Assembly: GCA_028687425.1 (NCBI GenBank) | Contig: JAQUAD010000021.1 | Coordinates: 1-43,385, forward strand | DNA: 43,385 bases | Source of the DNA: Sideroxydans sp. | GTDB lineage: Bacteria; Pseudomonadota; Gammaproteobacteria; Burkholderiales; Gallionellaceae | Direction: 5' to 3' | Shown: piece by piece, positions 8,590 to 13,461 of the stretch | How positions within the stretch are numbered: the stretch's first letter is position 1 | Layout of the letters: each line of letters begins with the position of its first letter | The notes under the pieces: generated by a model | Seen by the model: the letters and a program-made list of their open reading frames with translations, nothing else | Databases searched by the model: none | Told to the model about the DNA's origin: nothing | Position numbers and translations under genes: made by a program

Positions 8590-9288
8590 CTACGCAGGCT
8601 TCTGCTCATCCTCGACGCCGATGACCCGGGTCAGGTAGTGCTCGATATTGCGCTCGGGATGTTGCGGATAGTGTTCGGGCAAGCAGTCGATGCGCTGGAT
8701 GCGGTCGAAACGGAAGTTGCGATATTCGTCGCGCAACTCGCACCAGGTCAGCAGCGTCCAGTGGTCGCCCCAGCCGAACATGCCCAACGGCCACAGCGTG
8801 CGCTCGGTCTCCTGCTCTTTCATATCGCGATAGGCAACCTTCACCTTGAGGCGCAGCTCGCAGGCGCGGCGCAGCAAACCATGCGTCTCGCGCTCGGGAT
8901 AAGAGAAGTCCGGTATGCGGTATGGCAGGCGCGAGACTTCGTTCAGCATGGCGGGCGTGAGTACGGCCAGTATCTTGGCTTCAGCGCGTCGTGCCGCCTC
9001 GGCCAGTGCGGGATCGGTCCAGGCCTGCACCATGCGATTGCCAGCCAGTAGCGCGGTGATCTCGTCCATCTCGAACATCAGCGGCGGCAGGTCGAACCCC
9101 GCACGCAAGCGATAGCCCACGCCTGCCTCGCCGTCGATGGGCACGCCGGACAGCACCAGCGCCTGGATGTCGCGATACACCGTGCGTATGCCCACGCCCA
9201 GCTTGTCGGCCAAGGTTTGCCCGGTCATCGCCGTGCGACGGCCTTGCAGCAAGGTAACCAGCTTGAACAGGCGTTCGGATTTGCGCAT
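8590..9288 (-). CDS. WYL-domain (YafY-type) transcriptional regulator
   Basis: A 232-residue DNA-binding regulator. The N-terminal helix-turn-helix is at about 1-60 (MTGQTLADKLGVGIRTVYRD), followed by a linker and a C-terminal WYL domain from about 130 (RLKVKVAYRDMKEQETERTL, WTLLTWCELRDEYRNFRFDR). WYL domains sense small ligands or nucleic acids in other family members; the ligand here is unknown. It is the last gene of a minus-strand unit that begins at 10289 behind one copy of a 32-bp dyad repeated three times in this cluster. I infer that it binds those sites and regulates its own unit. The gap to the TfoX-N gene upstream is only 3 bases. Confidence 0.9.
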   Translation of the reverse strand: MRKSERLFKLVTLLQGRRTAMTGQTLADKLGVGIRTVYRDIQALVLSGVPIDGEAGVGYRLRAGFDLPPLMFEMDEITALLAGNRMVQAWTDPALAEAARRAEAKILAVLTPAMLNEVSRLPYRIPDFSYPERETHGLLRRACELRLKVKVAYRDMKEQETERTLWPLGMFGWGDHWTLLTWCELRDEYRNFRFDRIQRIDCLPEHYPQHPERNIEHYLTRVIGVEDEQKPA

Positions 9289-9291
9289 GGA

Positions 9292-9627
9292 TTATTTCTT
9301 CGGTTTCTTCACCTTGGGCTTGGGCAGCGGCAGCTCCCTGTCGGTTGCGCGCAGCAGCTCGCACAACCATTCCGCATCTTCCCATTGATCCGGCGTGATC
9401 AGCAGATGCGGCTTGGCGCCGGGATAGGGTGCGCCTTCGACCACGGTGGAGAGCTGCGCTTTCCCTGCTTCGGTCGGTTTGAGATAGAGCTGATCGTCGC
9501 ACACCAGCCCGACCGGCTTGCCGGCAAGGTAGAGGCAGTATTCGCCGAACATCTTTTTGCTGGATGCCGCGCCCAGCGCAGAAAGCTGGTCGAGCAGAAA
9601 GTCCATGGTGTTTTGCGATGTTGCCAT
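9292..9627 (-). CDS. TfoX N-terminal-domain protein
   Basis: A 111-residue cytoplasmic protein matching the TfoX N-terminal domain: KKMFGEYCLYLAGKPVGLVC early and a LYLKPTEAGKAQL segment. The tail is Lys/Pro rich (PLPKPKVKKPKK). In gammaproteobacteria full-length TfoX/Sxy combines this domain with a C-terminal helix-hairpin-helix-like domain and activates competence genes. Here the C-terminal domain is a separate gene at 10372-10641. The start has an AGGAG site a few bases upstream. Solo N-domain proteins are common and have no firm function, so a competence role should not be assumed. Confidence 0.85.
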   Translation of the reverse strand: MATSQNTMDFLLDQLSALGAASSKKMFGEYCLYLAGKPVGLVCDDQLYLKPTEAGKAQLSTVVEGAPYPGAKPHLLITPDQWEDAEWLCELLRATDRELPLPKPKVKKPKK

Positions 9628-9659
9628 CAGTCATCTCCTCTCTGCCCGGCTGCGAACCA

Positions 9660-9977
9660 TCAATGACTGATGGCAACCTCGCTCACCTGGATGGTGGTTT
9701 CGATATCGGTGTAGTTCGGCATATCCCCCTGCAACTCGGCGGCATGCGGCATGAATGCTGCCATGAAGTCATCGACCGTGTCGAACACGTACTGACACAT
9801 GGCAACAAATGCCGGAGCAGAACCGGGCGATGCGCCGCCCAGTCCGCGCTCCACCGACACACCACGATAGCCCTTCCCCTTGCTCAGCAGTTCGATGGAA
9901 CGCGGCATATGGACGTTCAGGTAATAGTCCATATCGAACCTGCCGCTGTTGGGATAGAAGATGCTGATCTTGACCAT
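9660..9977 (-). CDS. EthD-family small protein
   Basis: A 105-residue protein matching the EthD family, a dimeric alpha/beta-barrel fold: MVKISIFYPNSGRFDMDYYL, then HMPRSIELL, and a C-terminal VDDFMAAFMPHAAELQGDMPNYTD. The founding EthD is needed for ether degradation in actinobacteria, but most members are uncharacterised. It lies 9 bases after the dimeric-barrel-like gene at 9987-10289 and 32 bases before the TfoX-N gene, inside the WYL-linked unit. No catalytic role can be inferred. Confidence 0.8.
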   Translation of the reverse strand: MVKISIFYPNSGRFDMDYYLNVHMPRSIELLSKGKGYRGVSVERGLGGASPGSAPAFVAMCQYVFDTVDDFMAAFMPHAAELQGDMPNYTDIETTIQVSEVAISH

Positions 9978-9986
9978 ATGTCGTCC

Positions 9987-10289
9987 TTAGCCGCGCTGCA
10001 TCACATGCGCCTTGCTATGGCTCATCACCACGCTGCTCATGTCGATCAATTGCTCGCAGGTCGCGCCCATCTCGGGGCCGAATTTTTCGCCAGCCGTCTT
10101 CGCTGCTTCCAGACTTTCCCAGTACACCATATCGATCCACTCGCCATCGTCGGTCTCCGAAACGCTGCGGAAGCGGAAGCCGGGTTGCTGTTTGACCCAG
10201 TCGTTGAGCTTCTCATTGGCCTTCAGCCACTCGGCGGAAGTCTTGCCTTGCTGCAAACGGAAACGCACCAGTTCTATCGTGTCGGACAT
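9987..10289 (-). CDS. Uncharacterised ~100-residue protein, paralogue A
   Basis: A 100-residue protein starting MSDTIELVRFRLQQGKTSAE at an ATG with AAGGAG upstream; a longer frame to 10394 would run through the operator and has no such site. It closely resembles the gene at 12387-12689: both share ELVRFRL-QG-T-AEWL, QPGFR-RS-SET--GEWID and a C-terminal SHV/AHV segment. Size and pattern suggest a ferredoxin-like dimeric-barrel fold similar to antibiotic-biosynthesis-monooxygenase-type proteins, but no catalytic residues are evident. It is the first gene of the WYL-ending unit, 47 bases from operator copy A. Confidence 0.75.
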   Translation of the reverse strand: MSDTIELVRFRLQQGKTSAEWLKANEKLNDWVKQQPGFRFRSVSETDDGEWIDMVYWESLEAAKTAGEKFGPEMGATCEQLIDMSSVVMSHSKAHVMQRG

Positions 10290-10336
10290 GTTTTCTCCTT
10301 GTTGTGATGCCGGGACATCCGGCAAGGAGAATGCTA

Positions 10337-10368
10337 GCCACCTGCTGCTGACAACGTGATGGCAGGAG
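10337..10368 (-). promoter_or_regulatory. WYL-cluster operator, copy A
   Basis: One of three 32-bp near-identical elements. On the minus strand it contains the imperfect dyad CTCCTGCCA-N6-TGTCAGCAG followed by CAGGTGGC. It differs from copy C at 4 of 32 positions. It lies 47 bases upstream of the start at 10289 and just after the stop of the TfoX-C gene. The TTGTCA inside the right half-site may act as a -35, though spacing to a convincing -10 is poor. Confidence 0.7.
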
Positions 10369-10371
10369 TGT

Positions 10372-10641
10372 TCATGGACGCTTGTTGATTTCAATATCTT
10401 CCAGTTGCATCAGCAGACTTAACCTATCGTGCTTCGCCACCTCCTGCCAATGCCGTCCTGTCAATGCGCCTTCCATCGCCCACAGCAGGTTGAGACTGGC
10501 ATTGCCACTGTGCTGCTTCACTTGCAGGTAAGCGGGCACTGAGCCGAGTTCGCGCAATTGCTCAATGGTTTTGATGCCTGCCTGTTCCAGCATCTGCTGC
10601 GACTTGGGGCCGAAGTTAGGCAGGTCGGCGATGTTTGTCAT
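10372..10641 (-). CDS. TfoX C-terminal-domain protein
   Basis: An 89-residue protein made only of the TfoX C-terminal domain: LPNFGPKSQQMLEQAGIKTI, VPAYLQVKQ, NLLWAMEGALTGRHWQEV. The ATG at 10641 overlaps the stop of the cupin gene (ATGA), which fixes the start; an earlier ATG at 10665 would run 28 bases into that gene. It ends 4 bases before operator copy A. With the separate N-domain gene at 9292-9627 it makes a split TfoX pair in different units of the same cluster. Function unknown; such domains are helix-hairpin-helix-like and may bind DNA or partner proteins. Confidence 0.85.
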   Translation of the reverse strand: MTNIADLPNFGPKSQQMLEQAGIKTIEQLRELGSVPAYLQVKQHSGNASLNLLWAMEGALTGRHWQEVAKHDRLSLLMQLEDIEINKRP

Positions 10642-11156
10642 TCGCCTTCCCAGTAGTCGAGGCATTGATCGGGCCTGCCGATGAAGCGGAAGGCCCCTGG
10701 CTTGCCGTCGGCACCGGGTGGCAACTCGGCCATGACGCCGAAATGTCCGCTGACGGGATATTCACATACCTCGGGATAGATGCGTGTGCTGACGGCAAGG
10801 TATCTGAGTTCGGCAGTGCCGGTGTTGGTGACGACATGGGCGGTATCCCTTCCGCCCGGCGGCAGTGCGACAATGTCACCCTGTTTGATGGGGTAAGTCG
10901 TCTCGCCTATCTTCACCTCGCCCGATCCTTCCAGCACGAAGAACATCTCTTCGTTCGCCAGGTGGCTGTGCGGCGGGAAGGCTCGCTTGCCGGGCGGCAC
11001 GGCGGTGATGTTGTAGCCGAGTTTTTGCGCGCCGATCAGCGGCGAGATGCGCGCCATGCGTGCTTCATAGCGCGTTGCCGCTTCCCCTTGGGGTTCCATG
11101 CCGGGCGGCGGTGGCAGCAACTGGACATCGGCGATGTTGATGAGGGGTTTGCTCAT
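10638..11156 (-). CDS. Cupin-domain metal-binding protein
   Basis: A 172-residue single-cupin protein. Motif 1 carries H63, H65 and E70 (PPHSHLANEEMFFVLEGSGE) and motif 2 includes GDIVALPPGGRDTAH with H107, so the usual metal ligands (three His, one Glu) are present. Some such proteins are dioxygenases, isomerases or sugar sensors; the substrate here is not evident. It is the first gene of the unit behind operator copy B, which lies 40 bases upstream, and it is translationally coupled to the TfoX-C gene. Confidence 0.85.
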   Translation of the reverse strand: MSKPLINIADVQLLPPPPGMEPQGEAATRYEARMARISPLIGAQKLGYNITAVPPGKRAFPPHSHLANEEMFFVLEGSGEVKIGETTYPIKQGDIVALPPGGRDTAHVVTNTGTAELRYLAVSTRIYPEVCEYPVSGHFGVMAELPPGADGKPGAFRFIGRPDQCLDYWEGE

Positions 11157-11196
11157 GTGTGGTGCCTTTCAGTCGGGAGGAAGGTACGCACATTAT

Positions 11197-11228
11197 GCCG
11201 CCCCCTGCTGACAGCGTGGTGGCAGCAG
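11197..11228 (-). promoter_or_regulatory. WYL-cluster operator, copy B
   Basis: Second copy of the 32-bp element, with dyad CTGCTGCCA-N6-TGTCAGCAG on the minus strand. It differs from copy C at 2 of 32 positions. It lies 40 bases upstream of the cupin start and directly after the DUF1697 stop. A CATAAT hexamer follows immediately downstream and could be the -10. Confidence 0.72.
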
Positions 11229-11229
11229 G

Positions 11230-11763
11230 CTAGCCGGAGACCAGCCCCTGCAATTTCTTGACGGTGTTCCAGTTGCGGCCTGTCATGGCTACGCCGAGCA
11301 GCCGTTCCATATTGGCCGCCAGTTTGGATCGACCGATGCCATCCGGCGCATGCAGGTAGAACACATCCCCCTTCAATTCGCAGCGCTCGCTTGCAGCCTT
11401 GATCTTTTCGATCCCGGCAAGGTCGGGCGCAGGCGGAACGCATTTGAGGAAATTGAAATGCAGGGTGTTGCCTTCAGCTTTGTCTTCCGGGAAAGGGTTC
11501 GCCTTGATGGCCTTTTCCAGCTTGCCCGCATCGAGCAGCAGCACTTTGGGCTCGAAGCCGTGGCGCTCTTTGATCGCTGCAGCAATCCTTTCCGCCAGCA
11601 CAGCAGGCTCACCATTGCTGTCGAAAATGACATTACCGCTCTGGATGTAAGTACGGACAGCTTGCAAACCCAGCCCTTCCAGCACGGTGGTCAACTCCTT
11701 CATCGGCAGCTTGTTGTTACCACCGACATTGATGCCGCGAAACAGGGCGATGTCTGTCGTCAT
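11230..11763 (-). CDS. DUF1697 family protein
   Basis: A 177-residue cytoplasmic protein of the DUF1697 family, recognised by the N-terminus ALFRGINVGGNNKLPMKEL, then VRTYIQSGNVIFDS, and a C-terminal GRSKLAANMERLLGVAMTGR and NWNTVKKL. The family has no established function. It follows the glycosylase gene tag by 15 bases and is the last gene of the unit behind operator copy C. Its stop abuts operator copy B. Confidence 0.9.
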   Translation of the reverse strand: MTTDIALFRGINVGGNNKLPMKELTTVLEGLGLQAVRTYIQSGNVIFDSNGEPAVLAERIAAAIKERHGFEPKVLLLDAGKLEKAIKANPFPEDKAEGNTLHFNFLKCVPPAPDLAGIEKIKAASERCELKGDVFYLHAPDGIGRSKLAANMERLLGVAMTGRNWNTVKKLQGLVSG

Positions 11764-11778
11764 GGTTCCTCACTCCTG

Positions 11779-12390
11779 TCACGACCGGGACAGGGCCAAT
11801 ACCTCTGCCCGGCGGAAGCAATCCACCGAGTGGTCGTTCACCATGCCTGCCGCCTGCATGTGCGCATAGCAGATGGTCGAGCCGACGAACTTGAAACCGC
11901 GGCGCAGCAGTTCCTTGCTCATGGCATCCGACTCTTTGCTGGTCGCGCGGTAACCGGCCTCGCTGCGTATCTCGTTCACGATGGGTTTGCCATCCACGAA
12001 ACGCCACAGATAGTCAGCAAAGCTGCCAAATTCGCTCTGCACTTCCAGATAGCGCTGCGCATTGTTGATGGCGGCCTGTATCTTGGCGCGGTTGCGGATG
12101 ATGCTGGCATCGCCCATCAGCGCTTCGACCTTCTTTTCGCTATAGCGGGCGATCTTTTGCGGATCGAAGCCATCGAACAGGCGGCGGTAGTTCTCGCGCT
12201 TGCGCAGCACGGTGTACCAGCTCAATCCTGCTTGCGCCGCTTCCAGCGTCAGGAATTCGAACATCTTCTGGTCGTCGTGCACGGGTACGCCCCACTCTTC
12301 ATCGTGGTAGGCGACGTAATCGGGCTTGCTCAGGTCTACCCACGGGCAACGACATACTTCGCGTGTGTGTTTCATGCTGCGCCTGTTCAT
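11779..12390 (-). CDS. tag: DNA-3-methyladenine glycosylase I
   Basis: Removes 3-methyladenine from alkylated DNA in base-excision repair. Family features: CPWV near the N-terminus, YHDEEWGVPVHDD, FEFLTLEAAQAGLSWYTVLRKR, RGFKFVGSTICYAHMQAAGMVNDH. The zinc ligands of E. coli Tag (an N-terminal Cys, two His and a C-terminal Cys) have counterparts in CRCPW, YHDEEW and DHSVDC. The ATG at 12390 overlaps the stop of the upstream gene (ATGA) and gives 203 residues; the ATG at 12375 (198 residues) is equally possible. Second gene of the copy-C unit, giving that unit a DNA-damage flavour. Confidence 0.95.
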   Translation of the reverse strand: MNRRSMKHTREVCRCPWVDLSKPDYVAYHDEEWGVPVHDDQKMFEFLTLEAAQAGLSWYTVLRKRENYRRLFDGFDPQKIARYSEKKVEALMGDASIIRNRAKIQAAINNAQRYLEVQSEFGSFADYLWRFVDGKPIVNEIRSEAGYRATSKESDAMSKELLRRGFKFVGSTICYAHMQAAGMVNDHSVDCFRRAEVLALSRS

Positions 12391-12689
12391 TGCTGCAACA
12401 GCACGTGCGATTGTCCTTGCTCGCACTGGATGCTGGCGATGTCTATCATCGGTTCGCACTGGCCGGCCATTTCCACTTCGAATCGCTCACCGGCCAACTC
12501 GGCAGCTTCGCCGCTTTCCCAGCACAGCAAATCTATCCACTCGCCCTTGCTCGTCTCGGACAGACTGCGCAAGCGGAAGCCCGGCTGACGTTGCAACCAT
12601 GCATCGAGTTTCTTGTTCGACTCCAGCCATTCGGCCACTGTCCTGCCCTGACTCAAACGAAAACGCACCAGTTCTGTTTTGCCTGTCAT
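12387..12689 (-). CDS. Uncharacterised ~100-residue protein, paralogue B
   Basis: A 100-residue protein clearly paralogous to the gene at 9987-10289, sharing ELVRFRL, AEWL, KLD/N-W, QPGFR-RS-SET and GEWID in the same order. No signal peptide or membrane segment. It is the first gene of the unit behind operator copy C and is coupled to tag by a 4-base overlap. Both paralogues are leader genes of operator-controlled units, suggesting duplication of the gene together with its control site. Function unknown. Confidence 0.75.
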   Translation of the reverse strand: MTGKTELVRFRLSQGRTVAEWLESNKKLDAWLQRQPGFRLRSLSETSKGEWIDLLCWESGEAAELAGERFEVEMAGQCEPMIDIASIQCEQGQSHVLLQQ

Positions 12690-12728
12690 ATCGCCTCACA
12701 ATTGAATTTTGATCCTGCTGACACTCTA

Positions 12729-12760
12729 GCCGCCCGCTGCTGACAACGTGGTGGCAGCAG
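12729..12760 (-). promoter_or_regulatory. WYL-cluster operator, copy C
   Basis: Third copy of the 32-bp element (dyad CTGCTGCCA-N6-TGTCAGCAG, minus strand), 39 bases upstream of the start at 12689 and just after the DUF2239 stop. A second TGTCAGCAG occurs a few bases downstream on the same strand, at 12714-12722, as an isolated half-site seen only in this copy. Confidence 0.72.
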
Positions 12761-13386: not shown

Positions 13387-13426
13387 ATTTTACCCGGGTT
13401 TTATTTTAGGTCAATATTACCCGGGT
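13387..13426 (-). promoter_or_regulatory. DUF2239 promoter with tandem ACCCGGGT palindromes
   Basis: On the minus strand TTGACC (13409-13414) and TAAAAT (13387-13392) are separated by 16 bases, a good sigma-70 promoter 31 bases before the ATG. An 8-bp palindrome ACCCGGGT occurs twice: 13392-13399, next to the -10, and 13419-13426, just upstream of the -35. Centres are 27 bp apart and flanks are AT-rich. This arrangement is typical of a repressor operator pair; the regulator is not identified. Confidence 0.7.
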
Positions 13427-13461
13427 TTATTTATTTCAAATTATTGCTCGCCGCACGCAGA

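What the first reader, a model, noticed from the sequence alone, without database searches (positions are those of the whole stretch)
8590..12760. Three 32-bp dyad operators define a WYL-regulator regulon
Near-identical 32-bp elements at 10337-10368, 11197-11228 and 12729-12760 (2 to 4 differences) each contain CTGCTGCCA-N6-TGTCAGCAG, or a one-base variant of it, on the minus strand. Each lies 39-47 bases upstream of the first gene of a unit, just after the stop of the previous gene. The WYL regulator is the last gene of unit A. Together they control, I infer, two paralogous small proteins, EthD, split TfoX, cupin, Tag glycosylase and DUF1697. The consistent geometry in a 4-kb cluster points to one regulator; the WYL protein is the only candidate in the cluster. 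The stimulus may be DNA damage or alkylation because of tag.
Basis: partly seen in the sequence, partly recalled or inferred. Interest (0 to 1): 0.75.

Follow-up and report, generated by a model that had tools for sequence, protein, structure and literature searches.

The report
WYL activator regulon with shared operator
Three near-identical control sites in this bacterium are probably landing pads for one small regulator of the WYL family, and the same pairing of site and regulator recurs in many other bacteria, where it appears to switch on DNA-repair and detoxification genes.

Summary
The own genome has just these three sites at two mismatches or fewer. The dyad tracks the WYL gene: 21 of 21 family genomes with the ortholog have a strict site, against 8 of 69 without. 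In an independent class-wide sample it is 33 of 35 with a close homologue against 6 of 202 with none. Of 80 public WYL loci, 70 carry the dyad (5- or 6-bp spacer) within 2.7 kb upstream of the gene.

New here: each dyad is part of a promoter. A -10 element (TAnnnT) sits 9 bp from the gene-proximal arm at 38 of 49 family sites, but within 14 bp of 0 of 9 places in genomes lacking the regulator. The 6-bp spacer occupies the -35 position without resembling TTGACA. This is how DriD and PafBC promoters look, so I predict an activator. In relatives, GyrI-like, VOC and EVE genes and sometimes an AlkZ-like glycosylase join the units, which suggests a genotoxin response. Binding, activation and stimulus are inferred. 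Unlike PafBC and DriD, WTL replaces WYL and no WCX domain is visible.

The parts
10345..10368 (-). Operator 1 (CTCCTGCCA-TCACGT-TGTCAGCAG), heads unit A
10331..10336 (-). Predicted -10 element TAGCAT, 9 bp from the gene-proximal arm of operator 1
9987..10289 (-). Unit A gene 1: 100-aa ABM-like protein (no Pfam hit; predicted antibiotic-biosynthesis-monooxygenase fold)
9660..9977 (-). Unit A gene 2: EthD-family protein
9292..9627 (-). Unit A gene 3: TfoX N-terminal domain protein
8590..9288 (-). Unit A gene 4: WYL regulator, 232 aa, HTH_11 + WYL
11205..11228 (-). Operator 2 (CTGCTGCCA-CCACGC-TGTCAGCAG), heads unit B
11192..11197 (-). Predicted -10 element CATAAT, 8 bp from the gene-proximal arm of operator 2
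10638..11156 (-). Unit B gene 1: cupin
10372..10641 (-). Unit B gene 2: TfoX C-terminal domain protein
12737..12760 (-). Operator 3 (CTGCTGCCA-CCACGT-TGTCAGCAG), heads unit C
12723..12728 (-). Predicted -10 element TAGAGT, 9 bp from the gene-proximal arm of operator 3
12387..12689 (-). Unit C gene 1: second 100-aa ABM-like protein, 55% identical to the first
11779..12375 (-). Unit C gene 2: DNA-3-methyladenine glycosylase I (Tag)
11230..11763 (-). Unit C gene 3: DUF1697 protein

Best explanation
The WYL protein (8590-9288) is a sequence-specific regulator whose dimer binds the dyad CTGMCA-N6-TGTCAG (N5 in some other lineages). The dyad lies across the -35 position of three promoters, 8-9 bp upstream of the -10 element. 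When a stress signal reaches its WYL domain, the protein most likely activates these promoters, which lack a recognisable -35, by holding RNA polymerase there as DriD and PafBC do. The three units make two ABM-like proteins, EthD, a cupin, separate TfoX N- and C-domain proteins, Tag, DUF1697 and the regulator itself (feedback). The regulon most likely protects against DNA-damaging or alkylating compounds. Well supported by comparative genomics: the link between regulator and dyad, and the promoter geometry. Inferred: binding itself, operon structure, activation rather than repression, the signal, and the genotoxin role.
For: Dyad and regulator co-occur: 21 of 21 against 8 of 69 family genomes (Fisher p 2.5e-14) and 33 of 35 against 6 of 202 class genomes (Fisher p 7e-32) (neither test corrects for ancestry). 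In 7 of 7 genomes of other families with a homologue at E 1e-48 to 1e-59, a dyad lies 0.5-1.5 kb upstream of the WYL gene. 60 of 80 WYL loci hold the N6 core and 0 of 80 the reversed-letter control; 70 of 80 hold N5 or N6 within 2.7 kb upstream of the gene. TAnnnT at 9 bp: 38 of 49 family sites, against 0-4 of 98 strands at every other offset from 0 to 44. At 17-bp spacing the -35 hexamer is the N6 spacer, with 0 or 1 of 6 matches to TTGACA in 38 of 38. A sigma-70 scan finds no promoter at the three sites. Closest solved folds are PafBC and DriD. R35xxxR39 in the HTH is invariant in 27 of 27, like the recognition-helix pairs PafB R44/R48 and SiwR R38/R42.
Against: No binding or expression data. 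G009 has a perfect Tag-promoter site but no WYL hit, and 6 of 202 class genomes without a WYL hit have a dyad. Loci of the next more distant homologues (E 1e-33 to 1e-43) have no strict site: 0 of 7; in the class sample the middle tier has the dyad in 11 of 18 and the weak tier in 2 of 19, so the link holds for one subfamily. WYL repressors exist (CapW, passage). WTL replaces WYL and no WCX domain is visible, so a ligand other than ssDNA is possible. Most members are small proteins of unproven function. AlkZ-like genes lie beside the WYL gene in the same direction in 6 of 10 loci but behind the dyad in 4. Tag sites belong to one Tag lineage, and G078 has such a Tag without a site although it has the regulator. 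The best -35 over spacings 16-18 is at about chance level, not below it.
Confidence: 0.75

Rival explanations
1. Same regulator and sites, but the protein is a repressor that covers the -35 region and is released by a ligand, as described for the WYL repressor CapW.
For: Dyads overlapping promoters are typical repressor operators; WYL repressors exist (passage; BrxR papers seen only as a listing). The regulator is last in one of its own units, which suits negative feedback as well.
Against: The spacer at the -35 position has 0 or 1 of 6 matches to TTGACA in 38 of 38 at spacing 17, and no sigma-70-type promoter is found at the three sites, so there is little basal promoter to repress. The fixed 9-bp distance to the -10 is expected of an activator contacting polymerase and matches the description of DriD promoters.
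Confidence: 0.2
2. The dyad belongs to another transcription factor encoded elsewhere, and the WYL gene is only one of its targets.
For: G009 and 6 of 202 class genomes have dyads without a detected WYL homologue. Apart from Tag, no other gene was tested for co-occurrence.
Against: Co-occurrence at family, genus (13 of 13 against 3 of 21) and class level. The dyad is upstream of the WYL gene in 70 of 80 loci although the genes between differ (a VOC cluster in 30 of the 70, no gene in others). Two WYL-less genomes, G004 and G028, keep at the matching Tag promoter only the outer arm (G004) or a dyad one base off the strict pattern (G028).
Confidence: 0.06
3. The regulator senses small molecules (drugs or quinone-like compounds) and the regulon is mainly detoxification; Tag and AlkZ-like enzymes are passengers.
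For: YafY-EVE-VOC/SRPBCC operons have been read as ligand-activated antibiotic resistance (PMC7641849, section 8 read). VOC is the commonest gene between dyad and WYL. The WYL tyrosine is an invariant threonine. AlkZ-like genes are behind the dyad in 4 of 10 loci.
Against: Sites stand directly before Tag in G009, G016, G033 and G069 and about 80 bp before the Tag match in G115. The Sm-loop residues needed in PafBC (Arg pair and Phe) are kept.
Confidence: 0.35
4. The repeats are chance similarity or a mobile repeat such as a REP element.
For: They are palindromic and intergenic.
Against: Only three copies at 2 or fewer mismatches in 2.79 Mb, with a -10 element at fixed distance, and conserved across families and classes next to the same regulator.
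Confidence: 0.01

Closest known systems
DriD (Caulobacter crescentus WYL activator)
   Same: HTH + WYL protein, among the best PDB fold matches. Palindromic operator with the same GACA...TGTC core (a probe printed in PMC12340889 has GACA-N5-TGTC, passage). Sites overlap the -35 at fixed distance from the -10 in promoters with poor -35 (passages).
   Different: DriD is a 327-residue protein with a WCX dimer domain; this one is 232 aa without a visible WCX. Spacer here is N6; the arms read CTGACA/TGTCAG rather than CGACA/TGTCG. DriD targets are didA, bapE, recJ, dnaG.
PafBC (mycobacterial DNA-damage activator)
   Same: Best sequence match in PDB, E 2.3e-7, and best fold match. Its promoter motif tTGTCRgtg-8nt-TannnT (PMC5656591, passage) closely resembles the gene-proximal half here, TTGTCAGNA-N9-TAnnnT.
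   Different: PafBC is a heterodimer of which only PafB touches a non-palindromic site (passages); here both arms are conserved. The -10 is one base further. The WYL tyrosine is Thr here.
SiwR (Mycobacterium smegmatis WYL activator)
   Same: Small local regulon of putative enzymes beside the regulator gene; palindrome in the promoter between -35 and -10; activation by genotoxic stress (PMC10693628: abstract, section 12 and passages).
   Different: 19-bp imperfect palindrome, reported dependence on the -26 region; DinB/YfiT targets; Actinobacteria.
YafY-EVE-VOC/SRPBCC operons
   Same: Same gene company: EVE and VOC next to a YafY-type HTH-WYL protein (PMC7641849, section 8; here).
   Different: The section I read gives gene context only; no operator, promoter architecture or multi-unit regulon with DNA glycosylases.

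Membership tests
WYL-domain transcription factors (Pfam HTH_11 + WYL) | N-terminal HTH and WYL domain | tested here: met
   PF08279 E 3.7e-15 and PF13280 E 4.7e-16
WYL activators (PafBC/DriD/SiwR) | Two arginines, RxxxR, in the recognition helix | tested here: met
   R35 and R39, in predicted helix 34-46, invariant in 27 of 27 aligned; compared with PafB R44/R48 and SiwR R38/R42
WYL activators (PafBC/DriD/SiwR) | Arginine pair and Phe in the Sm-2 loop (needed in PafBC) | tested here: met
   F192 and R193 invariant, R190 in 90% or more of 27; aligned with PafC RNFR
WYL activators (PafBC/DriD/SiwR) | Trp-Tyr-Leu triad | tested here: not met
   W177-T178-L179, invariant in 27 of 27
WYL activators (PafBC/DriD/SiwR) | C-terminal WCX domain ('in most cases', passage) | tested here: not met
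   The 232-aa model ends with one short helix after the WYL domain (mean pLDDT 76, pTM 0.52)
WYL activators (PafBC/DriD/SiwR) | Binding site at fixed distance from the -10, over a poor -35 | tested here: met
   38 of 49 sites with TAnnnT at 9 bp; 0-1 of 6 matches to TTGACA at spacing 17 in 38 of 38
WYL activators (PafBC/DriD/SiwR) | Binds ssDNA and raises transcription after DNA damage | not testable with these tools
   needs protein and expression experiments
YafY-EVE-VOC/SRPBCC operons | HTH-WYL gene in an operon with EVE and/or VOC or SRPBCC genes | tested here: inconclusive
   Not in the window itself. In relatives: a VOC cluster between dyad and WYL in 30 of 70 loci with a site, and an EVE cluster (one representative per cluster scanned); EVE and VOC in some family loci
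WYL repressors of defence islands (BrxR, CapW) | Anti-phage defence genes alongside | tested here: not met
   PADLOC: of 10 window proteins only the WYL protein hits, mostly WYL-type models; relatives' genes were not scanned against PADLOC

The most novel reading that the evidence does not exclude
A compact WTL-type branch of WYL regulators, spread over Pseudomonadota and present in records labelled Acidobacteria and Nitrospirae, runs an SOS-independent genotoxin response. It activates promoters through a dyad that brackets an absent -35, combining a DriD-like dimer site with a PafBC-like half-site and -10 spacing, and in Gallionellaceae it has taken DNA glycosylases (Tag, and in some genomes an AlkZ-like enzyme) into a multi-unit regulon.
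Probability: 0.4. Interest if true: 0.78.

Novelty: new variant of a known kind. Interest (0 to 1): 0.62.

Why it matters
HTH-WYL (YafY-type) regulators are very common and, by the SiwR paper's account, few have been characterised. This gives one large branch a defined operator, a promoter architecture and a predicted mode of action that one gel shift and one deletion can test. It links WYL activators beyond Caulobacter and Actinobacteria to DNA glycosylases, and it lets regulons be listed in other genomes by a simple pattern search.

Tried and rejected
Chance or REP-type repeat: rejected. A fourth own-genome place at C117:16510 (3 mismatches) overlaps the called start of a long minus-strand reading frame (L156 3613-6531); not counted. 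LexA-type box: dropped, because the arms read CTGACA...TGTCAG and not CTGT...ACAG (LexA form recalled). Distant homologues: seven loci at E 1e-33 to 1e-43 have no strict site, so the claim is limited to the closer subfamily. Tag test: 48 Tag-upstream stretches fetched have no dyad. This set left out the Tag genes whose surroundings were already held, so it shows only that one Tag lineage is in the regulon; it is not a clean presence/absence test. The N5 scan had no control. Literature: ten searches showed no paper describing this operator with a YafY or WYL protein; the listings were cut at 20, 8 and 15 of 48, 158 and 53 papers, and those of 31 and 43 were mostly unrelated.

A pattern error of mine: one search allowed spacers of 4-5 instead of 5-6; it was repeated correctly and only that call is counted.

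Gene calling in relatives was my own script, without a trained gene finder; many ORF starts are too far upstream, so a few sites appear inside called ORFs. In one search the first gene could not be assigned for 10 of 49 sites, and for a few sites the direction was mis-set by chance -10 matches. Families in relatives rest on one Pfam-scanned representative per sequence cluster.

Site set for the -10 count: 48 of the 49 strict sites of the 21 orthologue-bearing family genomes plus the G009 Tag site. The one left out, G033:C26:1584, was fetched later and has no TAnnnT within 14 bp on either side. The 49 include close relatives (47 distinct 52-mers). Leaders folded: 15 of the 18 listed; L105, L109 and L136 were left out (L109 nearly repeats L101; the other two do not head ABM units).

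Full report
Observation. On the minus strand they read CTCCTGCCATCACGTTGTCAGCAG, CTGCTGCCACCACGCTGTCAGCAG and CTGCTGCCACCACGTTGTCAGCAG. They stand 47, 40 and 39 bases before the starts of an ABM-like gene (10289), a cupin gene (11156) and a second ABM-like gene (12689). Over 32 bp the pairs differ at 2, 4 and 6 places (counted). In the whole genome (2.79 Mb, 119 contigs) these are the only places with 2 or fewer mismatches; five further places have 3, where the reversed-letter control also gives 1-2 hits.

Genes. Pfam gives WYL + HTH_11, TfoX_N, EthD, TfoX_C, cupin, DUF1697, Tag and DUF2239, and nothing for the two 100-aa paralogues, which are 55% identical over 97 residues. A model of the first (pLDDT 92) matches antibiotic-biosynthesis monooxygenase folds such as SnoaB, so I call them ABM-like. 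PADLOC matches only the WYL protein among the ten.

Does the dyad go with the WYL gene? I searched 149 genomes (own and relatives) for the WYL protein and for TNCTGMCA-N6-TGKCAGNA (40 of 149 genomes; reversed-letter control in 5). In the window's family (90 genomes) 21 have an ortholog at E below 1e-100, and 21 of 21 have at least one strict site; of the 69 others 8 have one. Within the genus it is 13 of 13 against 3 of 21. The eight genomes hold ten places: seven inside called genes, one 42 bp before a Tag gene in G009, two in stretches without a called gene. G009 (94% complete) is the real exception. In seven orthologue-bearing genomes (G011, G017, G029, G033, G053, G069, G078) some or all sites lie on other contigs than the WYL gene; contig breaks may explain part of this, the rest would need control in trans.

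Other families. Seven genomes carry a homologue at E 1e-48 to 1e-59 (G102, G110, G115, G116, G120, G126, G146), and in 7 of 7 a strict site lies 0.5-1.5 kb upstream of it. Loci of more distant homologues (seven fetched, L125-L131) have none. Of the other 20, 13 have an N5 form with at most one mismatch and 8 a perfect one (no control run; Cellvibrio, Enterovibrio, Lysobacter and others). 70 of 80 hold an N5 or N6 core within 2.7 kb upstream of the WYL gene. The seven without any form are L207 (no upstream DNA), L209, L211, L216, L230, L270 and L271.

Independent sample. Of 276 genomes drawn across the class, 35 besides the own genome have a WYL hit below 1e-70; 33 of 35 carry TNCTGACA-N5/6-TGTCAGNA, and in 30 of 35 it lies within 2.6 kb upstream on the same contig. 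Of 202 genomes with no hit at 1e-20, 6 carry it. The tier from 1e-70 to 1e-40 has it in 11 of 18, the weak tier in 2 of 19, and G189, whose WYL hit (E 1.1e-40) is in two pieces with a stop, has it. The reversed-letter control occurs in 2 of 276. The own genome's sites do not match this stricter pattern because one arm reads CTGCCA. Fisher tests do not correct for shared ancestry.

Promoter architecture. Aligning 49 family sites (composition of the set under Tried and rejected) shows a -10 element at a fixed place: TAnnnT begins 9 bp after the 22-mer in 38 of 49 sites, while every other offset from 0 to 44 has 0-4 hits in 98 strands. The nine strict places in genomes without the regulator, other than the G009 Tag site, have no TAnnnT within 14 bp on either side: 0 of 9. 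At ten places in other families the counts are 4 at 9 bp and 3 at 8 bp of 20 strands, and 0-2 elsewhere. In the window the elements are TAGCAT (10331-10336), CATAAT (11192-11197, 8 bp) and TAGAGT (12723-12728). With a 17-bp spacing the -35 hexamer is exactly the N6 spacer, which matches TTGACA at 0 or 1 of 6 positions in 38 of 38; the best of spacings 16-18 reaches 4 once, 3 in 12, and 2 or fewer in 25 of 38, about what chance would give (chance estimate mine). A sigma-70 scan finds no promoter at the three sites. It finds one (TTGACC-16-TAAAAT) upstream of DUF2239, but its total of 2 is no more than the shuffles give (mean 1.5), so whether DUF2239 has its own promoter here is open; in G017 it sits in a likely unit.

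Mechanism. DriD sites overlap the -35 at one distance from the -10 in promoters with poor -35, and its DNA-binding domains sit either side of the -35 (PMC12340889, passages). A DriD probe has GACA-N5-TGTC. The PafBC motif is tTGTCRgtg-8nt-TannnT (PMC5656591, passage). The site here looks like both: a dimer dyad whose inner half is [CT]TGTCAG and whose -10 is 9 bp away. The protein's closest solved folds are PafBC and DriD (TM-scores about 0.4, model pLDDT 76), and its recognition-helix and Sm-loop residues are kept. From this I infer an activator. Against a full equivalence: the WYL tyrosine is an invariant threonine and no WCX domain is visible.

Function. In family relatives, units that start at a dyad also hold GyrI-like (first gene at 5 of 49 sites), VOC, EVE, DUF6157, DUF1801, RibD_C-type and FMN-reductase genes (one representative per cluster scanned). 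An AlkZ-like glycosylase gene occurs in 10 loci: beside the WYL gene in the same direction in 6 (L108, L111, L113, L115, L116, L117) and behind the dyad in 4 (L097, L099, L100, L104). OmdA genes often follow the WYL gene. AHSA1, PhnB-type and other RibD_C genes mostly lie next to the sites but behind them (L105, L133, L134), so I do not count them as members. Sites stand directly before Tag in G009, G016, G033 and G069, and about 80 bp before the Tag match in G115, of another family. GyrI-like enzymes can hydrolyse DNA-alkylating natural products (PMC5684135, title and abstract start seen). In the public loci the commonest form is dyad-VOC-WYL (a VOC cluster in 30 of 70 loci). The common thread is protection against reactive or DNA-damaging compounds; this is inference from family names.

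Where the regulator is absent. G004 and G028 (99-100% complete, single contigs) have no WYL hit, yet carry the Tag lineage found in the regulon (79-80% identity). At their Tag promoters G028 has a dyad one base off the strict pattern (TGCTGCCACTACGCTGCCAGCA) and G004 only the outer arm. This fits decay after loss but is two cases only. Counter-examples: G009 keeps a perfect Tag site without the regulator, and G078 has the regulator but a Tag without a site.

Prior knowledge. The EVE-domain survey (PMC7641849, section 8 read) already describes YafY-EVE-VOC/SRPBCC operons as ligand-activated systems. SiwR (PMC10693628, abstract, section 12 and passages) is a WYL activator of neighbouring genes under genotoxic stress. 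I saw no report of this operator in ten searches of the held library (listed under Tried and rejected). I therefore rate it a new variant of a known kind.

Noticed in passing
window 10290-10330 (minus strand) and leaders of relatives: Just downstream of the -10 of ABM-headed units there is a conserved small hairpin (GCCGG-N5-CCGGC type); 3 of 6 predicted pairs show changes on both sides among 15 leaders chosen from 18. It may be a 5' end stabiliser or translation control.
   Followed up: partly
window 13388-13430: Upstream of DUF2239 the stretch ACCCGGGTTT occurs twice around a sigma-70-like match (TTGACC-16-TAAAAT), looking like another operator.
   Followed up: no
window 9292-9627 and 10372-10641: TfoX N- and C-terminal domains are separate genes in two different units, and are separate in relatives' clusters too (13 and 14 loci).
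   Followed up: partly
L138 8272, L106 102, L139 8535: In genome G029 three strict sites lie within about 125 bases of contig ends with shared flanking sequence, probably one duplicated region split by assembly.
   Followed up: no
window 8590-9288: The WYL protein hits a PADLOC model of CRISPR-associated WYL proteins strongly (E 2.3e-59) although no defence gene was found among the ten window proteins tested.
   Followed up: no
L222, L223, L225, L228 (Cellvibrio): The operator spacer is 5 bp instead of 6 and the site is 61-76 bases before the WYL gene, so the same arms are used with two spacings in different lineages.
   Followed up: partly
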